Below, piece by piece: positions 1 to 26,133 of a stretch of DNA of 40,839 nt. Below the pieces are notes generated by a model, which was not told the DNA's origin, did no database searches, and saw only the letters and a program-made list of their open reading frames with translations. How positions within the stretch are numbered: the first letter of the stretch is position 1; each line of letters starts with the position of its first letter. A program made the translations under genes and the position numbers. Origin of the DNA: a virus; IMG/VR virus record IMGVR_UViG_3300025601_000003, positions 1 through 40,839 of that record; one strand, written 5' to 3'.

Positions 1-1
1 A

Positions 2-64
2 TCAGCAATCGGTGATATTGCATTACGACTGGTGACAAATGAAGAAATCGAATCTATAATGTAA
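2..64 (+). CDS. 3' end of the holin-like gene (duplicated by the overlap)
   Basis: This is the last 20 codons and TAA stop of the gene given in full at 40600-40776. It is present only because the contig overlaps itself; in the circular genome the two are one gene. Confidence 0.9.
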   Translation, partial: SAIGDIALRLVTNEEIESIM

Positions 65-86
65 CCGCCAGTACCAAACAGACACC

Positions 87-120
87 AAAAAACACCTAGT
101 TTATAAGCTCGGTGTTTTTT
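87..120. terminator. Two-way intrinsic terminator between the converging blocks
   Basis: The arms are AAAAAACACC (87-96) and GGTGTTTTTT (111-120), a perfect 10-bp stem with a 14-nt loop. The A-tract on one side and T-tract on the other give a U-run in both directions. It lies between the stop of the rightward holin-like gene (64) and the stop of the leftward chaperonin gene (129), so it can end both transcripts. The same element is seen again at 40799-40832. Confidence 0.9.
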
Positions 121-128
121 GTATCTAG

Positions 129-1823
129 CTAATCCTGGTCCTCGAAGACTGCTTGCTCAAACGCTTCCATACGGTCATTCTCTGACTCGTCTTGAGCTTC
201 CCCTAACATCCCTGCATGCTTTGCATCAAAGTATGCTTTCTTTGTTAGTGCCTTTGCAATCATCTCCTCACCTTCTCCCATGCTCTTGTCACGTACTTCC
301 ACCACTGAGATACCTGTGGTAATCAATGATGAAGCTACTGACACACCATGTTCTACAGTAAGACGTACAACCCGTGCTGGGTCAATAACATCTTCTCCAA
401 TTTCTAGTGAGCCACCAGCATTACTTTGAATTTGATTGTAGGGAGCTTTCAACGCTTCAGTCAATACTGACTTTGGTAGTTTCTCTGCAACAGCCTTTAA
501 GCAAAGACCACCTCCAGGTACATATCCTTCTTGAAGTGCTGCCTTACAAGCAAATACACCATCCTCAATCTTTAACTTTAAGTATAGAAGTTCTGCATTG
601 GTAGAGGCTCCAACTCGCACAACCCCAACCGCAGCATGTAGATTTGCAATACGCTTTTCAATACTCATCTTAGTCATCTCATTCTTTGCTTCAACAGCCT
701 GACCTTTTAGCATTGCTACCCGTTCTTTAATCTTCTCATCCTGTCCTTTCTTTCCACCTTGGAGGATTGCATCCTCTCGGCCTTCAACGTCCTTTACCGT
801 TAGTTTTTCTGCATACCCTAGTACCTCTTTTGTGACGTTGGAGAGCTTTTTTCCTTTCTCCTTATCTACTACAACAGCTCCTGTGTAGATAGCTAAGTCT
901 TCTAGCTGTTCTGTCCGTAATGCTGGACAAAGAACTGGGAAAATCTGGATTCCATTCTTTGCAGAAGCAGCTAATGACATAATTACATTGTTACTAAACG
1001 CTGGAGCAAACAAAGCAATCTTTGGTTCTTGCATTTTGTTCAAGAGGTTTACCACTTCAGCTACGTTATCCATCTTGTAGTTGGTAATGAATACAGGTAC
1101 ATCTTCTACAATCATTTCAAACCGTTCTGGATTTGTAACAAACCCTCGGTGAGCTACCTTTGCAGGAAAACTCATTCCTTTTGTAATCATTGTTTCTACC
1201 ACTCCCTTGTATCCTTCTACCGTATCCACATGGTTATCAACAAAGTTACCATCCTTATCTCGTGCAACTTCCCATAGCATTTCTGCTACCTTATCTGCAA
1301 TTTGTACATCCTCTTTTCCAATAGAGATAACAGCAATCTTCTTTAGGTCTTCAAGAGATTCAATAGGCTTTGCCATCTTCTTAATCTCTTTAATCACTAA
1401 CTCTTTTGCATTTTTCATTTCTCCACGAATAGCTCGTGCTCCCTTTACGTCTGTAGGACTTGAATTAAGACCTGCTGATGGAGCAGAATCTTGGTCTAGC
1501 ATGTCAAAAATAATGTTCATTAAAGTTCCAGCTACAACTGCTGTACCTGTTGTTCCATCTCCCACCATTTCGTTTGTTCGCTTTGAACCTTCCTTAAAGA
1601 AGTCTGCGGCCAGACGTTCGTGTTCATCTTTTGGCTTAATGTTTTCAGATACAGTAACACCATCGTTAGTCAATCTTGGACCACGATTAAAAGTTCTAGG
1701 AAGAATAGCGTTCTGCCCTTCAGGACCTAACGTCAACCTAACTGCATGAAAAACTTGATTAACACCGCTTCGTACTTTCTTACGTGCCTTTTCACCTGTA
1801 AGTACACTTGTATAGTCACCCAT
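129..1823 (-). CDS. groEL: GroEL-type (group I) chaperonin, phage-encoded
   Basis: The 564-aa product is a clear Hsp60/GroEL homologue (E. coli GroEL is 548 aa). Visible signatures are TLGPEG at 31-36, NDGVTV at 53-58 (Asp54 = E. coli D52), GDGTT at 88-92 (Asp89 = D87), IEDGV at 419-423 (Asp421 = catalytic D398), GYVPGGG at 433-439 and DPARV at 481-485. The apical domain is recognisable but diverged. The C-terminus lacks the GGM tail. Between residues about 461 and 481 it is roughly 27 residues shorter than GroEL, losing the NYGYNA hairpin that touches adenine, while about 17 extra residues follow residue 109. It is the last gene of the leftward block and starts 5 bp after the stop of an 88-aa ORF. 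No GroES is recognisable in the window. It probably folds virion or replication proteins. Confidence 0.96.
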   Translation of the reverse strand: MGDYTSVLTGEKARKKVRSGVNQVFHAVRLTLGPEGQNAILPRTFNRGPRLTNDGVTVSENIKPKDEHERLAADFFKEGSKRTNEMVGDGTTGTAVVAGTLMNIIFDMLDQDSAPSAGLNSSPTDVKGARAIRGEMKNAKELVIKEIKKMAKPIESLEDLKKIAVISIGKEDVQIADKVAEMLWEVARDKDGNFVDNHVDTVEGYKGVVETMITKGMSFPAKVAHRGFVTNPERFEMIVEDVPVFITNYKMDNVAEVVNLLNKMQEPKIALFAPAFSNNVIMSLAASAKNGIQIFPVLCPALRTEQLEDLAIYTGAVVVDKEKGKKLSNVTKEVLGYAEKLTVKDVEGREDAILQGGKKGQDEKIKERVAMLKGQAVEAKNEMTKMSIEKRIANLHAAVGVVRVGASTNAELLYLKLKIEDGVFACKAALQEGYVPGGGLCLKAVAEKLPKSVLTEALKAPYNQIQSNAGGSLEIGEDVIDPARVVRLTVEHGVSVASSLITTGISVVEVRDKSMGEGEEMIAKALTKKAYFDAKHAGMLGEAQDESENDRMEAFEQAVFEDQD

Positions 1824-1828: not shown

Positions 1829-2095
1829 TTATATTTTCTGTCCATTGATTTTAGAAGAAACTCTGTCACCTCGTATTCCTCTTTTCACCTTTGGAGTATT
1901 ATTCACCTTATAATTTGTCTCTTGAACTATAACACCCCAGATTTGACTGTTGTGTTCTAGTCCAAACTCTGACAATTTCTTTTGTGTCCCAGTTATAATA
2001 GCATCTTTTTTTTCTGTTGTTTTTCCTAAATCAAAAATAACCTGCGTTTCTAATGCAGACCTGCTACCAAAATCATTTACTTTGTATGTATTCAT
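1829..2095 (-). CDS. Unknown 88-aa protein co-transcribed with the chaperonin
   Basis: A basic 88-aa protein with a predicted mixed alpha/beta fold. It has no GroES mobile loop or roof motif, although it sits where groES usually lies. The C-terminal part (PKVKRGIRGD) is Lys/Arg rich. It ends 5 bp before groEL, so the two form one operon. The ATG follows AATAAACAT with no Shine-Dalgarno sequence, downstream of a leader hairpin. It could be a partner or regulator of the chaperonin; that rests on position only. Confidence 0.75.
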   Translation of the reverse strand: MNTYKVNDFGSRSALETQVIFDLGKTTEKKDAIITGTQKKLSEFGLEHNSQIWGVIVQETNYKVNNTPKVKRGIRGDRVSSKINGQKI

Positions 2096-4386: not shown

Positions 4387-4971
4387 TTAGAAAAGATGTT
4401 CATATACTTTTTTTATCCATTTATAAAAGTCATCTTCGCTCATCGTATGTTTTGCAAAGTTGCAGTATTTACAACATGCCACGCTGTTATCTTTAACATA
4501 GCCGCGCTTGCTGTTTTTCCTATCTATACCATTACATGTTAAAACGTGGTCTGATAACCGCTTCTGTTTTTTGCTTTCATTCAGTCTATCCTCTATTTCT
4601 TTTGAGTATTCTAGTCCACAATACTTACACGGGCTTTTAGCTAAAGTAGAAAAGGTCTTAAAGTCTATAACTTCATCATATCCCATCTTCATGTTCCTTC
4701 GTTTTAGATGAGAGTACTGTACTTTAAGTAGTGCCTTTTCCCGGTCTGTATAAATACCATACTGATTTCCTTTTCTTGCTAATACTTCATTCCTTAGACA
4801 CCCACAGCTATTAGACTTACCACTAGACAGATTGTCGCTGACTACAGCTTTTTCGTTACCGCACGAACACTTACAGAGCCACAGGTGCTTACCCCTACTA
4901 TCTTTACCAGCATGTTTTATGACGCTGAGTCTCCCGTAATTATCGTTGGTTCTATCTTTAAATCTAGGCAT
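4387..4971 (-). CDS. HNH endonuclease, homing type
   Basis: 194 aa. The N-terminal [13 protein letters not shown]...CGCL is the zinc-binding module common in phage HNH and homing proteins. The C-terminal part has [22 protein letters not shown] and [12 protein letters not shown], an HNH/His-Me finger nuclease with zinc-binding Cys. It overlaps the methyltransferase 3' end by 55 bp, and its own stop codon lies exactly where a displaced methyltransferase tail begins. This is the arrangement expected of a selfish homing gene inserted at the conserved GSG/TTG motif codons. Confidence 0.85.
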
Positions 4972-5675
4972 TTTATAGTTTCTTTTATTCGTTTAGTTCC
5001 AATATCAAAATAATTCTTGTCTTTTTCTATTCCGATAAAGTTCCTGCCTATATTAACACATGCAACTCCTGTTGTAAACGAACCAGCCGTAAAGTCTAAG
5101 ACTGTTTCTCCTTCGTTGGTGTATGTTTTTATTAGGTACTCCATAAGTGCTACTGGTTTTTGGGTTGGGTGTTCTCCATTTATACACTTAAAATAAATTA
5201 ATGTATAGGGGTTTTCTTTACCTCCATTAGATACATTTGTTGGTATGTTTTTTTGATCTCCGTAAGTTCCCCCTCCTTTAGTTCGGGTAAACACTTTTTC
5301 TTTTACCGTTTTAAACTGCCTATTATATATTGGTTGTTTTTTATAAAATACGCTTATATTTTCCGTTTTTCTTAATGGTTGTTTCTTAGCGTTTAAAAAA
5401 CCAGTCGGTCTACTTTTATCCCATATCCAATCATATTTATAGTTTTTAATATTACTCATTCTTAAAGCAGAACTAAATGGCTCACTACCAAATAATACTA
5501 TTGCACCATTAGGTTTTATAATTCTATTAAGTTGTTCCCACATTAATGTAAAATCAATAACGCTATCCCACTTACAAGCCGTCGTTCCATAAGGGGGGTC
5601 AGTCAGAACCATGTCTACACTCCCGTCTGGGATGTTCTTCATTTCTTCTAAGCAGTCTCCGTGTATTAGTTTCAT
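4917..5675 (-). CDS. Orphan DNA methyltransferase (N6-adenine or N4-cytosine, DPPY type)
   Basis: 252 aa. Motif IV is DPPYG at 26-30. The centre has DWIWDKSRPTGFLNAKKQPL, the C-terminus HPTQKPVALMEYLIKTY and the SAM-binding region VLDFTAGSFTTGVAC at 192-206, so motif order is IV then I (beta type). The usual DPFxGSGTT reads DFTAGSFTT here, replacing Pro-Phe and the second Gly. No restriction partner is adjacent. It probably protects phage DNA from host restriction. The last ~20 residues overlap the HNH start and differ from the displaced native end. Confidence 0.88.
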   Translation of the reverse strand: MKLIHGDCLEEMKNIPDGSVDMVLTDPPYGTTACKWDSVIDFTLMWEQLNRIIKPNGAIVLFGSEPFSSALRMSNIKNYKYDWIWDKSRPTGFLNAKKQPLRKTENISVFYKKQPIYNRQFKTVKEKVFTRTKGGGTYGDQKNIPTNVSNGGKENPYTLIYFKCINGEHPTQKPVALMEYLIKTYTNEGETVLDFTAGSFTTGVACVNIGRNFIGIEKDKNYFDIGTKRIKETIKCLDLKIEPTIITGDSAS

Positions 5676-5685
5676 ACCAATCTAA

Positions 5686-6084
5686 TTACTCTAGTAACCC
5701 CAGTGCTTCGTCTATGGTTTTGTGTTCTGCTATTGACTCCATAAATCTGTACATTTTTTGCTTGTATTCATACCGTGATTCACAATCACACTCTCCTGCA
5801 TCAGCAAACTCATGGTAGTCAATTTCTGCACACTTTTCATAATGAACATCGCCCCACCCCTTCACCTTACCCACGGCTTGCCAGAACTTTGGGTCTAGGA
5901 GGGCTTGACTGTCACTCAATTGCTTAAAGCAATCACCTGTGCTATTCCAATTTATGTTTAAGAAACCTTCTACGTTTGCCATAGTTCCTGCTGCCACATA
6001 AGTCCAGCCAGCCTTTTTCCCCAGAATATCTCCATACCACCCTCCCTCTATACCCCATTGGATGTGTTTTTCTATGTTTGTCAT
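5686..6084 (-). CDS. Conserved-looking phage protein of unknown function
   Basis: 132 aa. The start IEKHIQWGIEGGW resembles a family of small phage early proteins. Aromatic and acidic with Cys in GECDCESRYEYKQKMY. The ATG overlaps the stop of the upstream gene (ATGA), so the two are coupled. No catalytic motif is visible. Confidence 0.7.
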   Translation of the reverse strand: MTNIEKHIQWGIEGGWYGDILGKKAGWTYVAAGTMANVEGFLNINWNSTGDCFKQLSDSQALLDPKFWQAVGKVKGWGDVHYEKCAEIDYHEFADAGECDCESRYEYKQKMYRFMESIAEHKTIDEALGLLE

Positions 6085-6743
6085 ATTAGTTTTGTTACGT
6101 CTGTGTTGGTGAGTGATAATGCTAGTAGTAAGTCATTTTGAAATAAGTTACCCTTATCGTCAGAACATGCTTCCACAGCCTTGCTCCATTTCTCCCCCTC
6201 CTCTGCCTTGCCTTGCTTCCTACCTTCCTCCATCATCTCATCGAGTAACTCTTGGGATTTCTCTAGTCCTTTGCGTAAGCCTTGTGTACGTGCGGTGTGT
6301 AGGGCTTGGGTGAGGTGTTTGATTACCTCAACATCAGTTTTAGTCCCGTTACAAGAGCAACCAAACCCCTGACAACATATATATCCGTCAAAGTAATCCC
6401 CCCAACAATCCATAAACTCCTCCACCTGCTCCTCCATCTCCTTGTTGACCATTTCGTTGGCTTTACCTGATCTGGTAGTGGGGTTAGGGTCTGCTGTTTG
6501 GTAAAGTGTCCCTGGTTTTGCTATTTCCAGTACACTTCTCCTAGCTTCCCTCACCGCTTCCTCTGCTACTGATTGGGCGTAGGATTTTAGAGCATCTGTA
6601 CATACCTCTTTTATTGCAGCACCCATATTTGGTATTCGCTCATATCTCTCAGTAACGATACTTTCAATGACCTGTTCCAACTCGCATACCACCCTCTCTA
6701 GCTCTGTAGTGTCCTCTCTTGCGTTTGCGTGTGCTCTGTTCAT
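6081..6743 (-). CDS. Unknown coiled-coil protein with Cys cluster
   Basis: 220 aa from MNRAHANARE. Long helical, Glu-rich stretches flank a Cys cluster (YICCQGFGCSCNG) near residue 140. The frame is open up to 6869, but an upstream start would overlap the preceding gene by 113 bp, so the ATG at 6743 is preferred; start uncertain. No known family. Confidence 0.6.
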   Translation of the reverse strand: MNRAHANAREDTTELERVVCELEQVIESIVTERYERIPNMGAAIKEVCTDALKSYAQSVAEEAVREARRSVLEIAKPGTLYQTADPNPTTRSGKANEMVNKEMEEQVEEFMDCWGDYFDGYICCQGFGCSCNGTKTDVEVIKHLTQALHTARTQGLRKGLEKSQELLDEMMEEGRKQGKAEEGEKWSKAVEACSDDKGNLFQNDLLLALSLTNTDVTKLI

Positions 6744-6756
6744 ATCTCTAGTTTTT

Positions 6757-7032
6757 CTAATAGTTTGAATAATAGGCGTGGGCACTTGATTGGGAATGAC
6801 CATGTACTGGTGTGTCGTAATTGACTCCCAGTCGTATATTCTTTTTAATTTTGTTATAAGTTTTTTCACTCATCATTGCTATGTCATGTGATAAGTCACA
6901 CATACATTTAGCACAAACCCAATGGGCTTTCTTGATGAGAATTATATCTCTGTAACAGTTACATTTGTTTTTGTTTGCCTCATTTATACGGGCAAGTATC
7001 TTAGCTCCCTCTAATGCTTCTTCTTTTGTCAT
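6757..7032 (-). CDS. Small Cys-rich protein
   Basis: 91 aa. CNCYRD and CAKCMCD could ligate a metal; a helix follows (KTYNKIKKNIRL). Its ATG overlaps the stop of the ribbon-helix-helix gene (ATGA). The C-terminal ~38 codons lie opposite an open alternative frame of the next gene, so the real border between the two genes is not certain. Confidence 0.65.
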   Translation of the reverse strand: MTKEEALEGAKILARINEANKNKCNCYRDIILIKKAHWVCAKCMCDLSHDIAMMSEKTYNKIKKNIRLGVNYDTPVHGHSQSSAHAYYSNY

Positions 7033-7169
7033 ACGCTATTCTTTAATAAATCTCTTACAATTTCAGAGTATTTTACTGGACGTTTTTCTTTTACTATTTT
7101 TTTTGCTACTAACCTTGTTAGTTGTGCATGTACTTCCAAATCTACAGGAACCATTTTTCTCATACTCAT
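7029..7169 (-). CDS. Ribbon-helix-helix (Arc/MetJ-like) DNA-binding protein
   Basis: 46 aa. MVPVDLEVHAQLTRL is a typical RHH beta-strand plus first helix (alternating hydrophobic strand, then V/L-x-A-x-L), and VKYSEIVRDLLKN fits the second helix. Such proteins dimerise and bind operators through the strand. The stop overlaps the next ATG. It is a natural candidate for a repressor of the phage promoters near 16.4-17.2 kb. Confidence 0.65.
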   Translation of the reverse strand: MSMRKMVPVDLEVHAQLTRLVAKKIVKEKRPVKYSEIVRDLLKNSV

Positions 7170-7175
7170 ATTTTT

Positions 7176-7364
7176 TTAGTTGATAATCATTGCTATAAAA
7201 CCATATATTAGTATCAATCCTATACCCAAAAAAGTTAGTCCCAATGAATAATCAAAAAAACCATTTGCTACAAAATAAGTACTACCATCACAAATGTTCT
7301 GATAAAGGGTTCCTGACCATTGATATGTGCCTTTAAGACATTCCTTTAAAGATTCTGTTTGCAT
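7176..7364 (-). CDS. Small membrane protein
   Basis: 62 aa with one C-terminal membrane segment (LGLTFLGIGLILIYGFIAMI, residues about 42-61). The N-terminal part has two Cys (KECLKG, NICDG) and would face outward or form a disulphide. First gene after the terminator at 7440. Role unknown. Confidence 0.6.
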   Translation of the reverse strand: MQTESLKECLKGTYQWSGTLYQNICDGSTYFVANGFFDYSLGLTFLGIGLILIYGFIAMIIN

Positions 7365-7439
7365 AATTGAATTTTATTATTAATACATTTCCATTGTATA
7401 CATATTGAAGACAGAGGTCAAGGGGATAAAGGTGTGTAT

Positions 7440-7474
7440 AAAAAACACCCTAGTTTCCTAGAGTATTGTGTTTA
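7440..7474 (-). terminator. Intrinsic terminator overlapping the end of the 7458-7688 gene
   Basis: On the minus strand ACAC...CTAG-GAAA-CTAG...GTGT followed by six T. The inner CTAG/CTAG with a GAAA tetraloop and outer ACAC/GTGT make an interrupted hairpin. It ends the operon containing the resolvase gene. Confidence 0.6.
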
Positions 7475-7688
7475 CATATTTTGTAACTTTATGTTGGTTG
7501 TTTTTATACCAATCTTGTTTATTCAACCAAGAAAATACTAACTGATACTTGTCTAAAGCCTTTTGGTTTTGTACTTCCCATTTATCTAAAGTAGTTTTAT
7601 ATCCCTGGCTAGATATAATCTTTTCCAATTCATTAATTGTTTTAAGGTATCTTCTGTCCTTCTCACTTAAAATTGGCTTATTAAACAT
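7458..7688 (-). CDS. Unknown 76-aa protein
   Basis: A basic, mostly helical protein (SEKDRRYLKTINELEKII, FSWLNKQDWYKNN). It starts 1 bp from the stop of the RusA-like gene and is probably co-expressed with it. No family recognised. Confidence 0.65.
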   Translation of the reverse strand: MFNKPILSEKDRRYLKTINELEKIISSQGYKTTLDKWEVQNQKALDKYQLVFSWLNKQDWYKNNQHKVTKYVNTIL

Positions 7689-8062
7689 TATGCTATAAAA
7701 ATTTCAACTCTTGGATTTTTTTTATCGACAGGGAACTCATCACTGAACCCTGATACATACTTCCTAGAGTCATCTGGTAAGATTCCAGCACTCACAAGTC
7801 CATCATTGATGAATTTTTTAGCAAAAGCTACGTTATCTATGTCTTTACGTTCATTTTTGCAATACCATACGTATGAGATATGCACAGGAAACTCCAGATT
7901 TGCCCCGTGGTGCGTTTTTTTACACTCCCAGGCTACTCTGTCCGTTTCTTCCTTTTTAATCTTCCCAGCAACAAATTTATTAGTTCTGGCCGCCTTGTCA
8001 AAGGTATTGAAATCAGTCAATTCACCTTCAATGATTATATGGATGGTATTTTCATCATTCAT
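7688..8062 (-). CDS. rusA: RusA-type Holliday junction resolvase
   Basis: 124 aa. The C-terminal half carries the RusA pattern: ERKDIDNVAFAKKFINDGL (acidic DxDN), then AGILPDDSRKYVSGF with the second acidic pair, then a VEIFI strand. RusA cleaves four-way junctions at recombination or replication branch points, often to debranch DNA before packaging. The ATG overlaps the TGA of an unusual zinc-ribbon frame immediately upstream. Confidence 0.88.
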   Translation of the reverse strand: MNDENTIHIIIEGELTDFNTFDKAARTNKFVAGKIKKEETDRVAWECKKTHHGANLEFPVHISYVWYCKNERKDIDNVAFAKKFINDGLVSAGILPDDSRKYVSGFSDEFPVDKKNPRVEIFIA

Positions 8063-8163
8063 ACTACTTTCTTACGAATTAAAGGACATTTACTGCATTT
8101 TTCATAGTTTTCATCTAATGTTTCTATAAAATGATGGTGTCTTCGGTTGTTTTTACAAAGAGG
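8059..8163 (-). pseudogene. Zinc-ribbon coding frame without a start (-1 to the preceding gene)
   Basis: An open frame of about 34 codons reads LCKNNRRHHHFIETLDE, then YEKCSKCPLIRKKVV, and stops at a TGA overlapping the RusA ATG. The Cys/His spacing and operon-style ATGA overlap look genuinely coding, but there is no ATG, GTG or TTG and a TAA lies just upstream. It is in the -1 frame of the 136-aa gene's end. Either a frameshift fuses it to that protein or it is a broken gene. Confidence 0.5.
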
Positions 8164-8534
8164 TTATTTGGGAGTCTTAAAATCATCTTCAATCTTTTCC
8201 ATACTGTCTTGTTTTTATTTGTAAAGGTCTTGTGTATTTCTCTCTGTTCAGCCAATGAAAGTGATTCTGGTTTAATCTTTGCAACCTTAACATTGTTACC
8301 GTGCTTCTTGTTTAACTGTCTTTGTTCTCTGGACTGCAACATTGCTTTGAGTATCTTGATATTATTTTCTATTTGATATGCATCAATACAATTCCCAAAG
8401 TGAGCATAATGTCTATCGTGTCCAAGTTTCTTTTCTAATTTTCTGTATATCACACTCTTTGACAACCCTGTGTTCACCAATAGGTCAATAAGTATATGTC
8501 CACGTATCTTTAATGACTTGATATCTTTAATCAT
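8124..8534 (-). CDS. Unknown protein with a YRKLEKKLG...HFG helical motif
   Basis: 136 aa. IYRKLEKKLGHDRHYAHFGNC resembles a motif in small phage zinc-finger proteins (Y-x2-L-x3-LG...HFG). The rest is basic and helical. Its ATG overlaps the upstream gene stop. The last 12 codons overlap a zinc-ribbon frame in -1, so the real product could be longer by frameshift. Confidence 0.65.
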   Translation of the reverse strand: MIKDIKSLKIRGHILIDLLVNTGLSKSVIYRKLEKKLGHDRHYAHFGNCIDAYQIENNIKILKAMLQSREQRQLNKKHGNNVKVAKIKPESLSLAEQREIHKTFTNKNKTVWKRLKMILRLPNNLFVKTTEDTIIL

Positions 8535-8815
8535 TTTGCTCTATCTAGCTTCCTTTGCCAAAACCAATAAATATCTGGTCTCATATTTCCACTATGCTTG
8601 GTAGCTAAGTCATATCTATGGATAATCTTTTCTTGCGACCACTTCTGTACCATCCTATGAACACTCAGGTACTTTCCTTTCTTGGCTTTGCCGTTCTCAT
8701 CTCCACCAAATAACATTACTGCTGTCTTGTTTATGTAGTGAGCATACAGTTCAGGTTGCTTTGTGTTTGGTGTAGCAACTGTGAACCTACTCATGTCCAT
8801 TGATATTGTTTCCAT
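8531..8815 (-). CDS. Unknown 94-aa basic protein
   Basis: Basic, aromatic protein (WSQEKIIHRYDLATKH, DIYWFWQRKLDRAK). First gene of the 8815-7458 operon after a gene-free stretch, and coupled by ATGA to the next gene. No family recognised. Confidence 0.65.
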   Translation of the reverse strand: METISMDMSRFTVATPNTKQPELYAHYINKTAVMLFGGDENGKAKKGKYLSVHRMVQKWSQEKIIHRYDLATKHSGNMRPDIYWFWQRKLDRAK

Positions 8816-9195
8816 ATTTCTATACTACACTACTCTCTTGTAATCTACCCTGTGGATAGCAATATATCTTTGACCATAGGCACACCTTTCCCCTGAAAGA
8901 AAGCAGGGTACTCATTGGGTATGTAGTTGACTAGCTAATGGGTTCAATCTCTTACCCCCGTAGTTACTTACTGTATGCTACACATTTCAGTAACCGTAAT
9001 ATATAAGAGAAATCTAATCCAGAATATATGAGATGCAAATCTAATGGGAGGGTAGCAAGGTGTTAGCTATTTTCCCTCCTTTCGCATTTGAACCCCATAT
9101 ATCTTTGAAGTTTTATTATGTCAGAAGCACGACACAATACTGTATAAGACTTGTTTTACATCATTTGCCTTAATTGATGGTTCGCTAGAACGTTG
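8816..9195. other. Gene-free stretch with an extended imperfect hairpin
   Basis: No ORF longer than about 31 codons. The main content is a 79-bp imperfect inverted repeat (listed separately). A smaller inverted repeat GTTACT..AGTAAC lies near 8964-8995. The promoter of the leftward operon starting at 8815 should lie here; I see no strong -35/-10 pair. Confidence 0.5.
9024..9102. repeat. Extended imperfect inverted repeat / structured element
   Basis: Paired arms, outside in: ATATATG (9024-9030) with CATATAT (9096-9102); CAAAT (9036-9040) with ATTTG (9086-9090); GGAGGG-TAGC (9047-9056) with GCTA (9066-9069) and CCCTCC (9074-9079). Internal loops are symmetric (5/5 and 6/6), the TTTT bulge is one-sided, and the apical loop is 9 nt. 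It could be an RNA element, a cruciform or part of an origin. Confidence 0.5.
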
Positions 9196-9480
9196 TTATG
9201 GGCATATAAAAGTTCTTCGGGTCTTCTTACGGTCTTTATACCCTGAAGCTCTCTCAATACGCTTGCAGTTTCCACAAGTTAAAATATGTTCAACTGGTTT
9301 AGAATTTAATGCTTCTCTGTACCGAACAAACTTATCAGTCGAATCAAAATAGGCACGTATGATTTCTTTAAAATCTTCATGCTCTTTAGATGTAAGAGTC
9401 CTCCCGAGTATCTCGGACATAAAATCGTACATTTTTCCTCTTGTTCGTGATTGTTTTACTTCGTACATAGCAAAAAACAC
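9196..9480 (-). CDS. Small protein with C-terminal zinc-type Cys motif
   Basis: 94 aa. An N-terminal helical region (MYDFMSEILGRTLTSKEHEDFKE; shown in parts) precedes LTCGNCKRIERASG and a final ICP, giving a CxxC...C arrangement at the C-terminus. It begins 6 bp after a short ORF embedded in an unusual double inverted repeat, which probably controls it. Confidence 0.65.
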   Translation of the reverse strand: MFFAMYEVKQSRTRGKMYDFMSEILGRTLTSKEHEDFKEIIRAYFDSTDKFVRYREALNSKPVEHILTCGNCKRIERASGYKDRKKTRRTFICP

Positions 9481-9485
9481 ACCTG

Positions 9486-9599
9486 TTAAGCGTGATTAAG
9501 TTTGAATACTTTGTAGAGGGAAGCCAAAGGAAATGTGAATGAACCTCCAATAGCTTGGCCTCGCTCTACAAAGTATTTAATTGTGTTATTTAGGTTCAT
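9486..9599 (-). CDS. Possible 37-aa ORF inside a double inverted repeat
   Basis: An ATG at 9599 opens 37 codons (MNLNNTIKYFVERGQ...FKLNHA) ending at 9486, just 6 bp before the next gene. It could be a leader peptide or small protein. Its DNA contains two long inverted repeats that codon constraint would not predict, and its start codon lies inside one arm, so it may instead be a non-coding control element. Confidence 0.35.
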   Translation of the reverse strand: MNLNNTIKYFVERGQAIGGSFTFPLASLYKVFKLNHA

Positions 9600-9603
9600 T
9601 CAC
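9502..9603. repeat. Two interleaved perfect inverted repeats (pseudoknot order)
   Basis: Arm A is AATACTTTGTAGAG (9505-9518) with CTCTACAAAGTATT (9564-9577), 14 bp perfect and extendable to 17 with one G-T pair. Arm B is GTGAATGAACCT (9535-9546) with AGGTTCATTCAC (9592-9603), 12 bp perfect. The order A-B-A'-B' is that of a pseudoknot or of switching structures. An inner GCCAA/TTGGC extends stem A. Confidence 0.75.
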
Positions 9604-9670
9604 CTATAAATATACCATAGAATCAAAAATCACCTAATTTGTAACTGGGGATAAGTGGTGCTTAGTAATT

Positions 9671-9835
9671 TTACTCATACAACAATGCCTTTTTAAGGTC
9701 TTCAAGAGTAATACCTATCTCTTGCAACTTCTGGTCTACTTCGTTGCGGTTTATCATTGGTCCTATCACCTTTGCAGTTTCGTCAAACTTTTCTGGGTCA
9801 AACTCAAACTTCTTTACTTTACTTAAGTTATTCAT
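9671..9835 (-). CDS. Small unknown protein (54 aa)
   Basis: MNNLSKVKKFEFDPEKFDE opens a 54-aa charged, helical protein ending in LEDLKKALLYE. It lies directly downstream of the structured leader at 9852-9964, which is probably its 5' UTR. No family recognised. Confidence 0.6.
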   Translation of the reverse strand: MNNLSKVKKFEFDPEKFDETAKVIGPMINRNEVDQKLQEIGITLEDLKKALLYE

Positions 9836-9851
9836 ATATTTTATGTGCTGT

Positions 9852-9964
9852 GCTTACGCCTACAACCTCAAGGCCTCACCCTTTTTTCCTCCACAGTTGG
9901 GAGGTCTCCCTAATTAACTGCTTCAAAGGATAATCAGGACTGATTGTTGGTTGTAGGAGTAAAC
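9852..9964 (-). ncRNA. Branched structured RNA leader
   Basis: A closing helix pairs 9852-9867 with 9949-9964 (14 of 16 positions, including CCTACAACC/GGTTGTAGG). Inside are a long hairpin CAGTT-GGGA-GGTC-TCCC..AACTG (about 9895-9920) and a small hairpin ATCAG/CTGAT (about 9932-9943). The whole is a multi-branched fold of about 113 nt between two genes, 17 nt before the ATG of the 54-aa gene. It has a riboswitch-like or ncRNA-like layout; no known class recognised. Confidence 0.55.
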
Positions 9965-9991
9965 ACACCACTCCTTGTACCGTCCCAGTTA

Positions 9992-10237
9992 CTATACCAT
10001 TTTCTTTTTCTTCTGATATTCCAACTGTTGTGCATAAACTTTCTCACTATTCTCACGTACATACTTGGCTGTAGTAGCCTTCATTCGCTGTTTTTCGCCC
10101 TCTACAAGGTGATAACGGACAGTAGTGAGTGATACTCTATATTCCCTTGAAATCGCTTTATAGCTCATTCCAAGCTCATTACGAGCCTTTGTCCACTTTG
10201 CAACGTCTTTTTCTGTGTATTTTCTAGGTGCTACCAT
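9992..10237 (-). CDS. Helix-turn-helix DNA-binding protein
   Basis: 81 aa. KARNELGMSYKAISREY followed by RVSLTTVRYHL is a classical HTH (scaffold helix, turn, recognition helix), like resolvase or homeodomain-like HTH modules. The C-terminal part is basic and helical (YQKKKKMV). Possible transcription regulator of the early block. Confidence 0.7.
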   Translation of the reverse strand: MVAPRKYTEKDVAKWTKARNELGMSYKAISREYRVSLTTVRYHLVEGEKQRMKATTAKYVRENSEKVYAQQLEYQKKKKMV

Positions 10238-10242
10238 ATTTT

Positions 10243-10557
10243 CTATATTACTTTGTAAATATATTCTGTTCTTTCAAAATTCTCCCTATGAAGAAACGCT
10301 TGTTGACCATCACCCCAATTCATTACTGTGGCATGACTCCAAAGCGTCTCCATAGAAACGGAATAGATAATACTATCTTCCATTTCCAGGATACGTATTT
10401 CAACACAACCTGCATCCCTAATTTTCTTTAAAGTATTATAATCAATACCCCAAGAATTATTGTTTCTCATCAGGTGTACACTTTTTTTGACTCGTTTTCT
10501 AAAAATTCCTTCTTTTAGAGAACCAATCTTTTGTTGACTTGAATTATAGTAGTTCAC
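10243..10557 (-). CDS. Unknown 104-aa protein, GTG start
   Basis: Starts with GTG overlapping the TGA of the upstream zinc gene (GTGA), which supports this start. Sequence pattern IRDAGCVEIRILEMEDSI followed by YSVSMETLWSHA suggests a compact alpha/beta fold. No function recognised. Confidence 0.65.
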   Translation of the reverse strand: MNYYNSSQQKIGSLKEGIFRKRVKKSVHLMRNNNSWGIDYNTLKKIRDAGCVEIRILEMEDSIIYSVSMETLWSHATVMNWGDGQQAFLHRENFERTEYIYKVI

Positions 10558-10712
10558 GATTTTTTCTTTCTCTTGTCCTTTTTCTTTTGTTGAGATTCTT
10601 TTACTGCCAGTAACTCACATTCTAGTTTGTCACAAATAGACCATGATGGAACTATCATTTTACATCCACATATTCTGCATCCATCTGCATATTTTGTGTT
10701 TCTTACAGTCAT
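10554..10712 (-). CDS. Small zinc-ribbon protein
   Basis: 52 aa. CRICGCK and ICDKLECE form a CxxCxC...CxxxC pattern like the proteins at 3189-4201, followed by a Lys-rich tail (QQKKKDKRKKKS). The start overlaps the upstream TAA by 1 nt and the stop overlaps the next GTG. Likely metal-stabilised and nucleic-acid binding by charge. Confidence 0.65.
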   Translation of the reverse strand: MTVRNTKYADGCRICGCKMIVPSWSICDKLECELLAVKESQQKKKDKRKKKS

Positions 10713-11431
10713 TACATTTGTCCCTCAGTGTAAGAAATAACCTCATCATCTTCAAATGGCATGTCACCAGGTTCAAGTTCTTGAGCTTCTCTTACACTGT
10801 CAGGCATTTCATCTACTGCCTGTGGTGTTTCTGAGCGTGGGGCAAGGAATCGTACATGATACTCTCGTGAGGTCTTCATCTTGTCACGTAACCATTCTGG
10901 TAGTGCTTCAACTTCCTCCTCTGTCATTTTATATACATCCTGTACTACTCCTGCATTTATTTGTTCGGGTACTTCCATTCCTTTTGGAATTGAACCAAAG
11001 CTAATTGCCTTGGCAAATTCTTTTCCGTCTTTCATGGTTTCGTGAGTCACTTCCACCATGCAAGCCTTATTGAGTAGGTCTTCTACATCAAATACTTCTG
11101 CTTCTTGGTCCGTAAGTTTTGTTCCGATAAGTGCATGAGCCATCAGACGTAGTGTAGAGGTCATTTTTTCACTCTTGTAGAATGATAGGGTAACTTCCTT
11201 ACTGATTGCCATTGGTGATGATTTTGTCACTCCATCCTTTTCAAAATCTCGCATTTCATGCGGTAGTTCAAAGTATAGACGGATACGTGACTGTTCTTTT
11301 ACACTCCCATCCTCGTTTAGATAGGGTGTAGGGACTGTTCCGATGTTTACGATTTTAAATAACCGTGCAACATGGTTTCCTACTGGTACTAACTCTCGTG
11401 GTTTAGTATCTGCTTTTGGTGCTGTAATCAT
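10712..11431 (-). CDS. Probable phage single-stranded DNA-binding protein
   Basis: 239 aa. The N-terminal two thirds (VPVGNHVARLFKIVNIGT, SRIRLYFELP, ISKEVTLSFYKSEKMTSTL) matches a family of phage proteins with an OB-like beta domain found in replication modules. The C-terminus is acidic and ends near PGDMPFEDDE, resembling the D-D-x-I/M-P-F tail by which SSBs recruit partners. It is the only gene here that points to DNA replication besides RusA and the methyltransferase. Assignment is by pattern. Confidence 0.6.
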   Translation of the reverse strand: MITAPKADTKPRELVPVGNHVARLFKIVNIGTVPTPYLNEDGSVKEQSRIRLYFELPHEMRDFEKDGVTKSSPMAISKEVTLSFYKSEKMTSTLRLMAHALIGTKLTDQEAEVFDVEDLLNKACMVEVTHETMKDGKEFAKAISFGSIPKGMEVPEQINAGVVQDVYKMTEEEVEALPEWLRDKMKTSREYHVRFLAPRSETPQAVDEMPDSVREAQELEPGDMPFEDDEVISYTEGQM

Positions 11432-11485
11432 AGATAATATATTATTCTTAATTTTTATAGTTTAACGTCATACAGGACGTACTGT

Positions 11486-11629
11486 TTATGCTAAGAGCAG
11501 GATGAGTACAAGTATGAGGGCATAACCACCCATAATGGTAAGCCACACTCTCCAATAGCAAGCCCATGCAAATCCAAGCATTGTTATATCTTGATTGTCT
11601 TCAATAAATTTATTCAGTTTCGGGTTCAT
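11486..11629 (-). CDS. Small membrane protein (47 aa)
   Basis: MNPKLNKFIEDNQDITMLGF leads into a membrane region (ACYWRVWLTIMGGYALILVL and ILLLA). It overlaps the previous gene by 20 bp. Possibly two short membrane passes. Role unknown. Confidence 0.6.
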   Translation of the reverse strand: MNPKLNKFIEDNQDITMLGFAWACYWRVWLTIMGGYALILVLILLLA

Positions 11630-11804
11630 ATTTTTCTTTTAGATTTCTAATACTCTTGTGAGTTTCTTTTACCCAGTATCTTTGTTCCTCGGATAGCTTT
11701 GCACTGGTGTTGGGGTCAAACTCACCTGTTTCCAACATCTTCACCTTCGCTTGTTTCCACTCTTTATCATTTAGTCCTACTTGTCCTACTGGTACTGAAA
11801 TCAT
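11610..11804 (-). CDS. Unknown 64-aa protein
   Basis: Charged helical protein (DKEWKQAKVKMLETGEFD, SEEQRYWVKETHKSIRNLKE). It starts 1 bp after the stop of the 135-aa gene. No family recognised. Confidence 0.6.
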   Translation of the reverse strand: MISVPVGQVGLNDKEWKQAKVKMLETGEFDPNTSAKLSEEQRYWVKETHKSIRNLKEKYEPETE

Positions 11805-11805
11805 A

Positions 11806-12353: not shown

Positions 12354-12354
12354 A

Positions 12355-12528: not shown

Positions 12529-12530
12529 TT

Positions 12531-12734: not shown

Positions 12735-12766
12735 TTTTCTTTTTTATTATTTCTCTTAACTCTTAT

Positions 12767-13195: not shown

Positions 13196-13202
13196 AAAAA
13201 TT

Positions 13203-18983: not shown

Positions 18984-20234
18984 ATGAACCCAGAAGCTCA
19001 ACATGTACTTCATCCCTGTCAAGCATTGATTGCTATGGACCCTCATCGGTTCAGAGTTGCTTGTTGTGGGCGTCGTTTTGGTAAAACCTTTATGGTAGTT
19101 GACCAAATGAAGGCTAGAGCCTCTCTACCGAACTCCAGAATTGCTTATATTGCCCCTACCTACCAGCAAGCAAGGGATATTTGTTGGGCACAGCTTAAAC
19201 GAGAGTGTGAACAGTCTGCTATGACCATAAATGAGTCCAGATTGGAGATTGTACTGGTTAATGGGTCCATGATTGTCCTAAGAGGTTGGGAAAACATTGA
19301 TACGTTACGTGGTCAGCAGTTTGACCTTATTGTAATTGACGAGATTGCATCTATGCGTAACTTCTGGGAGAACTGGCATGAGATTATTCGTCCTACCCTG
19401 ACTGACACTAAGGGAGAAGGTATCTTCATTAGCACTCCCAAGGGCTTTAACCACTTTTATGACCTGTTTAACATGGAAAGTAAGGATGATGACTACAAAT
19501 CATTCCATTTTAGTACGTATGACAACCCCCATATTGATAATGATGAGGTAGATAAAGCTAAATCAGAGCTTACAGAAGACCGATTTGCTCAGGAATACCT
19601 GGCTGACTTCCGTAAAACTGAAGGACTCGTATATAAGGAGTTCAAACGCTCAGAATACATTGTTAAAGGCACAATGGATGACTGGCTGCTTTCTAAAGGA
19701 CAGACTATTGCTCGTAAGTACCAAGGAGTTGACTTCGGCTTTGTTCACCCTGCTGCTATCCTTAATATCAAAGAGACATCTGATGGTATCTTCTTTGTTG
19801 AAACTGAATGGTACAAAACAGGGAAAACTGATGCTGAAATAGCTGAAGTAGCCGCAGCAGAAAAGGCGCATGCAGTATATCCAGACCCAGCTAACCCTGG
19901 AGGTATAGAAGAACTAAAGAAAGCTGGCTGTAATGTCCGAGAGGTTATTAAAGGACCAAACTCTGTAAAGAACGGAATTAATATTGTCCGTGAGCTTCTA
20001 AAGGCCAATCGTCTTTTTGTCCATGAGAGTTGTGAGAACCTTGTCTTTGAGTTTGAGACATATTCTTATGGAGACAAGGGTAGCAAGGCTAAGGTAGATG
20101 AGAACCCTGTAAAAGAGAATGATGATGCACTCGATGCATTACGATATGTCCTTATGATGGTAGACGGCAAAAAAGGACATAACAAAGCAGTCATCAGAAA
20201 ACCCAACTTTACTGGCTTTAATAAACGAGGATAG
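18984..20234 (+). CDS. terL: Terminase large subunit
   Basis: 416 aa. Walker A is GRRFGKT at 29-35, Walker B LIVIDE at 115-120, and the coupling motif STPKG at 150-154. The RNase H-like nuclease begins at GVDFGF (248-253, Asp250) and ends with ENDDALDALRYVL (near 375-388). It packages DNA into the prohead and cuts it. No intein or insertion. Confidence 0.95.
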   Translation: MNPEAQHVLHPCQALIAMDPHRFRVACCGRRFGKTFMVVDQMKARASLPNSRIAYIAPTYQQARDICWAQLKRECEQSAMTINESRLEIVLVNGSMIVLRGWENIDTLRGQQFDLIVIDEIASMRNFWENWHEIIRPTLTDTKGEGIFISTPKGFNHFYDLFNMESKDDDYKSFHFSTYDNPHIDNDEVDKAKSELTEDRFAQEYLADFRKTEGLVYKEFKRSEYIVKGTMDDWLLSKGQTIARKYQGVDFGFVHPAAILNIKETSDGIFFVETEWYKTGKTDAEIAEVAAAEKAHAVYPDPANPGGIEELKKAGCNVREVIKGPNSVKNGINIVRELLKANRLFVHESCENLVFEFETYSYGDKGSKAKVDENPVKENDDALDALRYVLMMVDGKKGHNKAVIRKPNFTGFNKRG

Positions 20235-20300: not shown

Positions 20301-22244
20301 ATGCTTGGAGAAATCACTAAAGGAAAAACCCCTATATCCAGCTATCAACCTTCTAAGGAAGTTGCTGACTTTACGACTTTTGTTCGGGCTGATATCCAGT
20401 CTGGAGAAGACATCCTTCACCGTAACTGGGTAGAACTCAATAACAGGTCTATTGAAGAAGACCAAGACCGAGGTAAGCGTACCTTTAATGCTTTTGTTGA
20501 TGAAACAATAGAAGACCCTGCTACCGCATGGCAATGGCGTGGTACTAGGAGTAAGGCACGTAACCAAGCAATCGCTCTACATGCACAGCTTACTGCTGGG
20601 TATATTATTCCTGAGTATGTAGCTCAAAATGATGATGATGAGGAGGATATGGATTTCTCAGAAATGATGAAAGATACCGTAGAATGGATGATTACCAACT
20701 CACAATACAAATCTTCATTCCTTCAAGCAGCAATGGGTATGTTAGTAAACCCAGTAACCTACATGGCTGCTGACTTTGCAGATGTATTCCAGACTATTAA
20801 GACCAAAACTGATACAGGAATGTACATTAAAGAAGAAGTCATTGATGAGGTGCTTTCAGGCTTCCAAGCTCCTGTATATGGAGCCACTGATGTCCTTATC
20901 TCTAACGCCTACGAGCAAAATATCCAAAAGCACCGTTTCAATATTCAAAAACGCTTTATTGAATACTCAGAAGCAAAAGCAAAGTATGGAAAGCACCCAA
21001 ACTGGGACTTTGTACGAGCTGGCATGAATACCGTACTATCTGACTCAGATGGCTTATTCTATGATGTATATGACAGTGACCACCCTTCAATGGTAGAAGA
21101 AGTTACCTACAGGAATCGTCGAGAAGATACTGAGGTGTGTTTCCTTGCTGGAATCTACATGGGTAACATGACAGATGTCGAATGGAATCCTATAAGACAT
21201 CGAGACAACAAGGGTGCTCCAAAATACAATGTTGTCCCTTACGGATACCAACGAGTAAACGAGCATTTCTATTACTACAAGTCTTTGATGAACACTCAGT
21301 ACTGGGATAACCAGCTCCTTGATGCTCAGTACCAGATTGGTATGAACCGAGCCTTCCTTGATGCCAACATGCCTGTAGCTATTTCTGGTAGTGACCAAGT
21401 AGACTCAGACGTTATCTTCCCATCAGCAGTTGTTACCTTTGAAGACCCTAATACAAAGGTCGTACCGCTACTTCCACAAGCTAACCTTGGAGGTATCTTT
21501 TCTGCAATGGCAAAGACAGAAGAATCAATGAATGAGTCAGGAGTGTCTCAGACAACTTCTGGACAGCTTCCACAGGCTTCTCAAAAGGCTACATCGGTTG
21601 CTATTGCAAACAAGAACGCTCAAGTAATGCTTGAAGGAGTAGGTAAGAATCTGGCTGAATCAGTTGTGCAATATGGTGATTTAATGAAAGACATTGCTAT
21701 TAACAACTTGGTTGTACCACAAGTAGATGAGATTATGGGAGAGACAGCTCGACTAAAGTATAAGACATTGACCTTGAACAATAAGACAGTCAATGGTCGT
21801 GAAGTCTCTAAGGTAATCCGCTTTGATGAAAGTCTACTAGGGCGTGATATGACAAAGAAAGAAAAGCAACGACAATCTATGTCGCTCCTAGAAGAATCAG
21901 GATACCCTAACGTAAAGAAACACATTTACAGGGTAAACCCAGAGTTGTTCTCACGATTTAAGTATTTGACTCGTGTAGAACCAAAAAAGATGTTCCCAGA
22001 AAACGAGGAATACCGACAAGCAATTATGTCTCAGATTTATGCTCAATTTGCAGATAATCCATTTGTCTCACTGGAAGACTTAACTCGAAAGACTCTATAC
22101 GCTACATTCCGTTCGGAAACGGAGGAGATTATGAAGAAGGAAGAAGATGCAGTTCCTCAAGCTCCAGCTGATGCAAAGCAGACCCAGTTTGGTCAGCAAG
22201 CTCAGAATACGGCTACAGCTACGGCTACACCTATGGCTGGATAG
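20301..22244 (+). CDS. Portal protein (podovirus-like)
   Basis: 647 aa, the size of short-tailed phage portals. N-terminal DEDILHRNWVELNNRS-like region, WQWRGTRSKARNQAIALHAQ, then a stem/wing region, a conserved RVEPKKMFPENEEYRQ near the C-terminus, and a Gln/Ala-rich tail. Position after terL and before scaffold fits. It forms the dodecameric DNA gate and docks the terminase. Confidence 0.8.
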   Translation: MLGEITKGKTPISSYQPSKEVADFTTFVRADIQSGEDILHRNWVELNNRSIEEDQDRGKRTFNAFVDETIEDPATAWQWRGTRSKARNQAIALHAQLTAGYIIPEYVAQNDDDEEDMDFSEMMKDTVEWMITNSQYKSSFLQAAMGMLVNPVTYMAADFADVFQTIKTKTDTGMYIKEEVIDEVLSGFQAPVYGATDVLISNAYEQNIQKHRFNIQKRFIEYSEAKAKYGKHPNWDFVRAGMNTVLSDSDGLFYDVYDSDHPSMVEEVTYRNRREDTEVCFLAGIYMGNMTDVEWNPIRHRDNKGAPKYNVVPYGYQRVNEHFYYYKSLMNTQYWDNQLLDAQYQIGMNRAFLDANMPVAISGSDQVDSDVIFPSAVVTFEDPNTKVVPLLPQANLGGIFSAMAKTEESMNESGVSQTTSGQLPQASQKATSVAIANKNAQVMLEGVGKNLAESVVQYGDLMKDIAINNLVVPQVDEIMGETARLKYKTLTLNNKTVNGREVSKVIRFDESLLGRDMTKKEKQRQSMSLLEESGYPNVKKHIYRVNPELFSRFKYLTRVEPKKMFPENEEYRQAIMSQIYAQFADNPFVSLEDLTRKTLYATFRSETEEIMKKEEDAVPQAPADAKQTQFGQQAQNTATATATPMAG

Positions 22245-24646: not shown

Positions 24647-25174
24647 ATGTCTAAACGAATACCGTGGAATAAAGGGTTAAAACTTTCAGAGATGCCTAAA
24701 TATGAAAATATGGGCTTTCAGAAGGGGAATACTTTAGGAGATAATCCAAAAAGTAAATCAACCCAATTCAAAACTGGAGAAAGACCTTCTTCTAAAACGG
24801 AGTTCAAAAAAGGACATATTCCTTGGACGAAGGGCAAAGGCCACCTAATGACAGGAGTAAATAATTCATGTTGGAGGGGAGGGCTAGAGTTCCGTAAGCC
24901 AAATGAGAAAAAGCACATGTGCAGTAGGTACATGGGCTGGATGAAAGCGGTAAAAAACCGCGATAACTGGAAATGTCAAATTGCCAACATTGACTGTAAA
25001 GGTCACATGGAAGCACATCACATTCTCAACTGGCGCAATCATCCTAAACTACGTTATGAGGTTAATAATGGCATCACACTATGTCACTTTCACCACCCAA
25101 GGAAGGTGGAAGATGAGAAACGGCTAATTCCAACATTTCAGGAATTAGTGTCAGTATCAAGTGAACTAATTTGA
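24647..25174 (+). CDS. HNH endonuclease with NUMOD3-like repeats, homing type
   Basis: 175 aa. The N-terminus has repeated WNKGLKLSEMPKYE and TWTKGK-like NUMOD3 DNA-binding motifs (FKKGHIPWTKGKGH). The C-terminal HNH is MEAHHILNWRNHPKLRYEV then NNGITLCHFHH. It sits between decoration and capsid genes and overlaps the capsid reading frame by 4 bp (TTGA). Likely a selfish gene that targets phage genomes lacking it. Confidence 0.88.
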   Translation: MSKRIPWNKGLKLSEMPKYENMGFQKGNTLGDNPKSKSTQFKTGERPSSKTEFKKGHIPWTKGKGHLMTGVNNSCWRGGLEFRKPNEKKHMCSRYMGWMKAVKNRDNWKCQIANIDCKGHMEAHHILNWRNHPKLRYEVNNGITLCHFHHPRKVEDEKRLIPTFQELVSVSSELI

Positions 25175-26133
25175 ATCCAACAGGAGGACACACATATGGT
25201 CTCTCCCCTGACGCATGTCAAACAGAGATTGATGCAGTAGCATGGGAAAAGTACCAGCGAACTGCACAACCAGGCTACCTTTCAGCACAAGACGATTTCT
25301 TTTTCAACCAAATGTCTACGGACCTTCTAGCATACACATGGGACGAAGATTCAAACGTAGGAGCATTTGAAGAAACAGATGAGCAGGAAACTCTACAGAA
25401 TTCTGATACTTTCCTTGGAAACACTAAGACTAAGAAGCAGCAAAAGTGGACCAAGCAAGTACCAGTTTCTATGGAAGCGTTCAAAGCAGACCTTCATGGA
25501 AAGCGAGCACGTATCGGAGGACAGATGGGAGACCGAGCACGACTCACACAGGACAAGGCAACTATCCTGAACACTTACGGAGATGCGTTTGCAGGAACAG
25601 TAAACACTACTCCAGATGGAGATGCTGCTGCTTCTAACTCTCACACTACTCTAAAAGGATTCACAGTAGATAACTTGGAAACAGGTGCTCTAAACGCTAA
25701 CAACCTTTGGACAGTAGTACAGAGTCTAGCAAACCAGAAGGCACAAGATGGTGAGGCAGGTTCATACGTATTTGAAGGTATCTTAGTACCATTCATCCTA
25801 TACAAGACTGCAAAGGAGGTAATGGATTCAACTCTAGTACCATTCTCAGCAGAGAACCAAATCAACTTCTTTGACACTGTATACGGAACAGTTCGTATCG
25901 CAGCTTCAATCTTCCTAGGTTCTACATACAACACCAACAGTAATGCAAACACTTCTTACCACTGTGTATCATCACAGCATATGGTAAATCGTGAGACATT
26001 CATGGGGTTGTCTACAGACCTGATTGACCCAACTAAAACAGCTAATGACTCATGGATGTACCGTGCTCGATTCCTCGAAGCACACTTCTGGGAGACTTTC
26101 TCTGGATATGTAGGTTCAAACGGAACAGCGTAA
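25171..26133 (+). CDS. Major capsid protein (TTG start or lost ATG)
   Basis: 320 aa. FEETDEQETLQNSDTFLGNT, KQQKWTKQVPVSMEAFKADL and FFDTVYGTVRIAASIFLGS fit an HK97-fold capsid of the N4 gp56-like type. Position after scaffold supports it. There is no in-frame ATG until residue 48 (MSTDLLAYT), although the preceding 47 codons read as a normal capsid N-terminus (NPTGGHTYGLSPDACQTEI). The only upstream start is TTG at 25171, overlapping the HNH stop. The HNH insertion probably replaced the original ATG. Confidence 0.8.
   Translation: MNPTGGHTYGLSPDACQTEIDAVAWEKYQRTAQPGYLSAQDDFFFNQMSTDLLAYTWDEDSNVGAFEETDEQETLQNSDTFLGNTKTKKQQKWTKQVPVSMEAFKADLHGKRARIGGQMGDRARLTQDKATILNTYGDAFAGTVNTTPDGDAAASNSHTTLKGFTVDNLETGALNANNLWTVVQSLANQKAQDGEAGSYVFEGILVPFILYKTAKEVMDSTLVPFSAENQINFFDTVYGTVRIAASIFLGSTYNTNSNANTSYHCVSSQHMVNRETFMGLSTDLIDPTKTANDSWMYRARFLEAHFWETFSGYVGSNGTA

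What the first reader, a model, noticed from the sequence alone, without database searches (positions are those of the whole stretch)
129..1823. Phage chaperonin missing a nucleotide-pocket hairpin and with no GroES
The ATPase residues (Asp54, Asp89, Asp421) are kept, but about 27 residues are missing around 461-481, where E. coli GroEL has the hairpin whose Asn479/Ala480 touch adenine. No GroES is recognisable in the genome. Phage EL chaperonin is known to work without a co-chaperonin; this one may be another, smaller-genome case with an altered cycle.
Basis: partly seen in the sequence, partly recalled or inferred. Interest (0 to 1): 0.75.

Follow-up and report, generated by a model that had tools for sequence, protein, structure and literature searches.

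The report
Phage chaperonin missing pocket hairpin
A complete 40.7-kb uncultivated phage genome, like a whole clade of related small phages, encodes its own GroEL-type protein-folding ring that has lost the piece GroEL uses to hold the adenine of ATP and to join two rings, and none of these phages carries a recognisable lid (GroES), which suggests a naturally stripped-down folding machine.

Summary
The 564-residue protein (minus strand, 1823->129) is a group I-type chaperonin with Asp54/89/421/481 (GroEL 52/87/398/495) kept. Profile alignment shows 25 residues missing opposite GroEL ~465-489 (most of helix Q and the adenine-contacting hairpin) and 12 near 429-440; AlphaFold2 (pLDDT 90) shows only a loop there. 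It is not isolated: all 37 members of a phage chaperonin clade have 7-9 residues where 91 other chaperonins have 21-56 (GroEL 33). With those columns removed they still form one clade (SH-aLRT 99), apart from phage EL and AR9 chaperonins. GroES is absent from all 31 clade records tested, five of them with end repeats that mark complete genomes (this one: exact 127 bp), against 31 of 55 other chaperonin-bearing records with it. Inter-ring residues mutated in single-ring GroEL are deleted or replaced; GroES-contact residues Y203 and V264 are mostly lost. In 36 of 38 relatives the gene lies near terminase or portal on the same strand. Best reading: an ATP-driven, lidless, probably single-ring chaperonin serving head/portal assembly. 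Ring state, GroES independence and clients are inferred, not shown. New variant of a known kind.

The parts
129..1823 (-). Hairpin-less group I-type chaperonin, 564 aa
387..419 (-). Site of the deletion: residues 469-479 (AGGSLEIGEDV), replacing GroEL helix Q and the adenine hairpin between helix P and the D495 motif
381..383 (-). Asp481 = GroEL D495 (ribose contact), kept in all clade members
561..563 (-). Asp421 = GroEL D398 (catalytic), kept in 31 of 32 core members
1557..1559 (-). Asp89 = GroEL D87 (Mg/phosphate), in the GDGTT motif
1662..1664 (-). Asp54 = GroEL D52
132..293 (-). C-terminal extension, residues 511-564: predicted two helices, replaces the GGM tail; conserved in the core clade, short or absent in deeper hairpin-less members
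1829..2095 (-). 88-aa ORF directly upstream; homologues at the same place in 8 relatives; not a GroES by sequence profile or predicted fold
1..127 (.). Direct terminal repeat, copy 1: complete genome
40713..40839 (.). Direct terminal repeat, copy 2
18984..20234 (+). Large terminase; in relatives the chaperonin gene lies beside it, here 17 kb away on the other strand
20301..22244 (+). Putative portal protein (by position after terminase and size; no family hit); conserved neighbour of the chaperonin in relatives
25171..26133 (+). Putative major capsid protein (by position and conservation, up to 83% identity in relatives; no family hit)

Best explanation
A phage-encoded group I-type chaperonin that still binds and hydrolyses ATP but works without a phage lid, most likely as a single open heptamer-like ring that holds and releases clients by ATP-driven domain movements. 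One ancient deletion took out helix Q and the beta-hairpin of the equatorial domain, removing both the adenine contacts and the main inter-ring contacts. Its likely clients are head, portal or packaging proteins made at the same time. Shown: the deletion, its clade-wide conservation, kept catalytic residues, no recognisable GroES in complete genomes, gene neighbourhood in relatives. Inferred: ATPase activity, ring state, lid independence, clients.
For: Deletion and kept aspartates, model, group I fold (Z 40 to GroEL chains of GroES-bound complexes). Same gap in all 37 clade members, 7-9 vs 21-56 residues in 91 others; single clade with those columns removed. D52, D87, D495 invariant and D398 in 31/32 core members, so hydrolysis seems under selection. 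No GroES in 31/31 clade records vs 31/55 others, Fisher p 1.3e-8 without correction for kinship; five clade records have 121-127 bp terminal repeats. The single-ring mutant of GroEL changes R452/E461/S463/V464 (PMC5575113): the last three are deleted here and R452 is E/N/D/K/Y/Q in the clade; A109 becomes E/D in many. Y203 is A/G in 29 of 32, V264 polar in most. Gene beside terminase/portal on the same strand in 36 of 38 relatives. Phage EL shows lidless, single-ring ATP-bound operation is possible (PMC7185714).
Against: No experiment or ring model; inter-ring contacts could be rebuilt elsewhere, as in EL. A hydrophobic apical groove is largely kept (F204, L237, L259), so host GroES could still bind. 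In this genome the gene is not in the head module. GroES absence counts are of related records and many contigs are fragments. Highly diverged lids such as T4 gp31 could escape the searches.
Confidence: 0.45

Rival explanations
1. It uses the host's GroES as its lid and otherwise works like GroEL, the deletion being tolerated.
For: Many group I chaperonins lack a neighbouring groES, and 24 of 55 hairpin-bearing records also lack one. F204, L237, L259 and V263-like residues are mostly hydrophobic. The model resembles GroES-bound GroEL chains best, though AlphaFold may simply prefer that state.
Against: Y203 is A/G in 29 of 32 core members, V264 is mostly polar, mean strong-hydrophobic count at eight GroES/substrate positions 5.25 vs 7.06 in GroES-bearing relatives; R197 lost. 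No clade member keeps a groES.
Confidence: 0.27
2. It still forms a double ring through new contacts (for example an in-register interface, or the helical C-terminal extension), cycling between double and single rings as phage EL does.
For: EL lost helix Q and forms 1:1 ring contacts that open with ATP (PMC7185714). The core clade has a conserved helical C-terminal extension with no match in solved chaperonins.
Against: The loop that makes the EL ring contacts (residues 479-503 of EL) has no equivalent here: it is the deleted stretch. The GroEL tail points into the cavity, so an extension is not an obvious ring linker (established knowledge). Deeper hairpin-less members lack the extension.
Confidence: 0.22
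3. An unrecognised phage protein acts as the lid: a gp31-like co-chaperonin or the conserved 88-aa ORF upstream of the chaperonin.
For: The 88-aa ORF stands where groES stands in a groESL operon, and homologues do so in 8 relatives.
Against: Predicted beta-alpha-beta-alpha-beta, not a beta-barrel (pLDDT 78); no PDB match; hhalign to GroES below 1%; missing from many clade members.
Confidence: 0.1
4. It is a decayed or non-catalytic chaperonin homologue kept for binding only.
For: The hairpin that contacts adenine is gone, and two members (L129, L183) have Asn at D398.
Against: D52, D87, D495 invariant and D398 nearly so in a clade with 42-62% identity; full-length frames throughout.
Confidence: 0.05

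Closest known systems
E. coli GroEL (group I chaperonin)
   Same: Three-domain fold over residues 1-512 (Z 39-40), catalytic aspartates, TLGP and GDGTT motifs
   Different: 28% identity; helix Q, adenine hairpin and inter-ring residues missing; no GGM tail but a 54-residue helical extension; no groES; below NCBIfam's GroEL cut-off
Phage EL gp146 chaperonin
   Same: Phage-encoded, no phage GroES, helix Q lost, changed ring interface, GroES-contact region altered
   Different: EL keeps the beta17-beta18 hairpin (503-512) and has a longer loop there (EL-like HHBS47: 56 residues vs 8); 211-kb phage; separate branch
Phage AR9 gp228 and OBP gp246 single-ring chaperonins
   Same: Phage chaperonins without co-chaperonin that exist as single heptamers (PMC9598537)
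   Different: AR9 keeps 35 residues in the deleted region and has Asn at D495; giant phages; separate branch. OBP was not compared by sequence here
GroEL single-ring mutant SR1
   Same: The same interface residues are lost (R452/E461/S463/V464)
   Different: Four point mutations made in the laboratory, hairpin kept, still binds GroES very tightly (PMC5575113)
crAss-like phage cr111_1 chaperonin
   Same: Shortened (24 residues) in the same region, no GroES found in the genome
   Different: Long separate branch, shorter loss

Membership tests
Cpn60/TCP-1 chaperonin superfamily (PF00118) | Profile score over the curated cut-off and chaperonin fold | tested here: met
   92.2 vs 34.3 bits; Z about 40 to GroEL
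Cpn60/TCP-1 chaperonin superfamily (PF00118) | Catalytic Asp at GroEL 52, 87, 398 | tested here: met
   Asp54, Asp89, Asp421
GroEL proper (TIGR02348 equivalog) | Score over NCBIfam's curated cut-off | tested here: not met
   240.6 vs 582.1 bits
GroEL proper (group I) | Works with a GroES lid | tested here: inconclusive
   No groES in the complete phage genome; use of host GroES cannot be tested here
GroEL proper (group I) | Equatorial helix Q and beta-hairpin contacting adenine | tested here: not met
   Missing in alignment and model
GroEL proper (group I) | Double heptameric ring with staggered contacts at 452/461/463/464 | tested here: not met
   The contact residues are deleted or replaced; the oligomer itself was not testable
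Group II chaperonins (thermosome/CCT) | Score over thermosome cut-offs | tested here: not met
   47.7 vs 450 bits or lower; the built-in lid was not examined in detail
Phage EL-type chaperonins | Common branch with EL-like/AR9 proteins | tested here: not met
   Separate clade, SH-aLRT 99 (long branches of EL-like and AR9 noted)
Phage EL-type chaperonins | No co-chaperonin in the genome | tested here: met
Phage EL-type chaperonins | Ring opening or single ring with ATP; no interaction with host GroES | not testable with these tools
   needs purified protein

The most novel reading that the evidence does not exclude
A clade of small tailed phages has evolved a lidless, obligate single-ring chaperonin by one deletion that removed the adenine clamp and the ring-ring interface together; it hydrolyses ATP with relaxed base specificity and is dedicated to folding the phage's portal/head proteins beside which it is encoded.
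Probability: 0.3. Interest if true: 0.8.

Novelty: new variant of a known kind. Interest (0 to 1): 0.6.

Why it matters
Chaperonin theory rests on two rings, a lid and a tightly built ATP pocket. A natural clade that dropped the ring interface, part of the pocket and (apparently) the lid, yet kept its catalytic residues through deep divergence, gives a ready test of what is really needed: can ATP be used without the adenine hairpin, can one open ring fold proteins, and what do phages need it for. It also shows that lidless phage chaperonins are not confined to giant phages (complete genomes here are 37.9-43.5 kb) and arose in more than one lineage.

Tried and rejected
Single-sequence search of viral contigs found nothing; the alignment-based searches did. 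Kin in bacterial genomes: the genome-contig scan used patterns specific to the core clade and gave only a hairpin-bearing Riflebacteria protein, so absence from cells is not proven. Cryptic GroES: 88-aa upstream ORF rejected; 67 small-ORF families rejected; PHROGs on small window ORFs gave no co-chaperone. No match for the upstream ORF (L189 copy), capsid or portal proteins in named phages; no tRNA, so the host stays unknown. Considered and rejected: assembly or frameshift artefact (same gap in 37 proteins); C-terminal extension as compensation for the deletion (deeper hairpin-less members lack it); membership of the EL/AR9 lineage. Foldseek/VIA did not list EL or AR9 chaperonin structures among the shown rows; that says nothing about fold difference. 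The promoter/terminator scan added nothing. Model coordinates could not be opened, so the position of the extension relative to the pocket was not measured.

Full report
What is there. The reading frame 129-1823 is on the minus strand and encodes a 564-residue chaperonin (PF00118 92.2 bits, cut-off 34.3; best solved relatives are GroEL proteins, E 2.4e-59). The AlphaFold2 model from a 61-row alignment has mean pLDDT 90 and pTM 0.81; residues 3-513 superpose on GroEL chains with Z about 40, rmsd 2.4-3.0 A for GroES-bound states.

The deletion. Two independent alignments agree. MAFFT over 128 chaperonins reduces GroEL 460-492 (33 residues) to 8 in the window protein. hhalign between the clade profile and a profile of hairpin-bearing chaperonins gives one 25-residue gap opposite GroEL ~465-489 and one of 12 near 429-440. 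The exact edges are uncertain by a few residues. Lost are most of helix Q, the hairpin with N479 and A480, which contact adenine in GroEL (PMC3053311; PMC2741606), and E461, S463 and V464. Kept are D52, D87, D398, D495, I493-like Val, T30-P33 and the GDGTT motif. The model shows only a loop between helix 455-468 and strand 480-482.

A clade-wide trait. Alignment searches of IMG/VR found about 38 loci with 42-62% identity, and related terminases led to deeper relatives. All 37 distinct proteins in the clade have 7-9 residues in the region; the 91 other chaperonins have 21-56. On a tree of 70 rows built without the affected columns and without the tail, the hairpin-less proteins are one side of a branch with SH-aLRT 99, and the label changes once. 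The quick method was used, the root is arbitrary, and some rows have long branches. EL-like, AR9, S6 and LPJP1 chaperonins fall elsewhere.

GroES. Bases 1-127 of the window equal bases 40713-40839, so the record is a complete genome of 40,712 unique bases; four relatives have 121-123 bp end repeats (43.5, 42.8, 41.3 and 37.9 kb). PF00166 found nothing in this genome or in 30 other clade records, while 31 of 55 hairpin-bearing virus records have a hit over the cut-off; Fisher p 1.3e-8, not corrected for relatedness or contig length. hhalign of a GroES profile to 67 small-ORF families of the clade gave at most 1.6%, with controls at 93-98%. A lid as diverged as T4 gp31 was not used as a control and could escape.

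Interfaces. The single-ring GroEL mutant changes R452, E461, S463 and V464 (PMC5575113). In the clade three of these are deleted and R452 is mostly Glu, Asn, Asp or Lys; A109 of the other contact site is often acidic. Of eight GroES/substrate-contact positions the clade keeps on average 5.25 strongly hydrophobic residues, against 7.06 in GroES-bearing relatives; Y203 is Ala or Gly in 29 of 32 and V264 is mostly polar, but F204 is invariant. So client binding seems kept while GroES binding seems weakened. This is inference from residues.

The tail. Core members end in 53-65 residues predicted as two helices, with no counterpart in aligned structures. Deeper hairpin-less members end with 6-15 residues, so the tail came later or was lost in them, and is not needed to tolerate the deletion.

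Neighbourhood. In 36 of 38 relatives terminase or portal is on the held sequence, always on the same strand as the chaperonin and within 5 kb, mostly 0.2-2.5 kb; in four it lies between terminase and portal. In the window it has moved: opposite strand, 17 kb from terminase, and, across the joined ends, convergent with the lysis-like genes at 39753-40508. A 99%-identical contig from another metagenome covers 4897-19731 with the same order. The 88-aa ORF just upstream (1829-2095) recurs in that place in eight relatives; it has no family and is predicted beta-alpha-beta-alpha-beta.

Mechanism. Most likely: ATP binds without the adenine clamp through the kept phosphate, magnesium and ribose contacts, drives domain movement in a ring whose ring-ring interface is gone, and clients are held and released without encapsulation, as proposed for EL (PMC7185714). 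Expected consequences are weaker or less base-specific nucleotide binding, single rings, and insensitivity to GroES. Clients are probably head or portal proteins, by gene neighbourhood. Rough weights: active ATPase 0.85, lid independence 0.6, single ring 0.55, head/portal clients 0.5.

Novelty. Phage chaperonins without GroES are known in giant phages (PMC7185714, PMC9598537), and GroEL-like genes are common in environmental viruses (PMC5332604; PMC8390657). I found no description of a chaperonin clade without the hairpin; the literature held here is incomplete and one key survey of viral chaperonins (PMC5649160) could not be read.

Noticed in passing
window 1-127 and 40713-40839: Exact 127-bp direct terminal repeat; the record appears to be a complete genome although the tool's line on end class gives none for it.
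   Followed up: yes
window 1829-2095 (-): 88-aa ORF of unknown family directly upstream of the chaperonin, conserved in the same place in eight relatives; possible unknown partner.
   Followed up: partly
window 129-1823 vs 18984-22244: In relatives the chaperonin sits beside terminase/portal; here it has moved 17 kb away to the other strand, convergent with lysis-like genes.
   Followed up: partly
window 24647-25174 (+): ORF with a CxxH-type HNH look sits between two conserved head genes; homologues occur in some relatives (L204, G007) and not others, as a mobile endonuclease would.
   Followed up: no
L014 (cr111_1, crAss-like) and L112: Two unrelated phage chaperonins also have a shortened region (24 and 21 residues), cr111_1 without a recognisable GroES; partial loss may have happened more than once.
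   Followed up: no
L129 and L183 chaperonins: Asn in place of the catalytic Asp at GroEL position 398.
   Followed up: no
window 4917-5675 (-): DNA methyltransferase-like gene; window 7688-8062 (-) RusA-like resolvase; 18485-18982 (+) RNase H-like.
   Followed up: no
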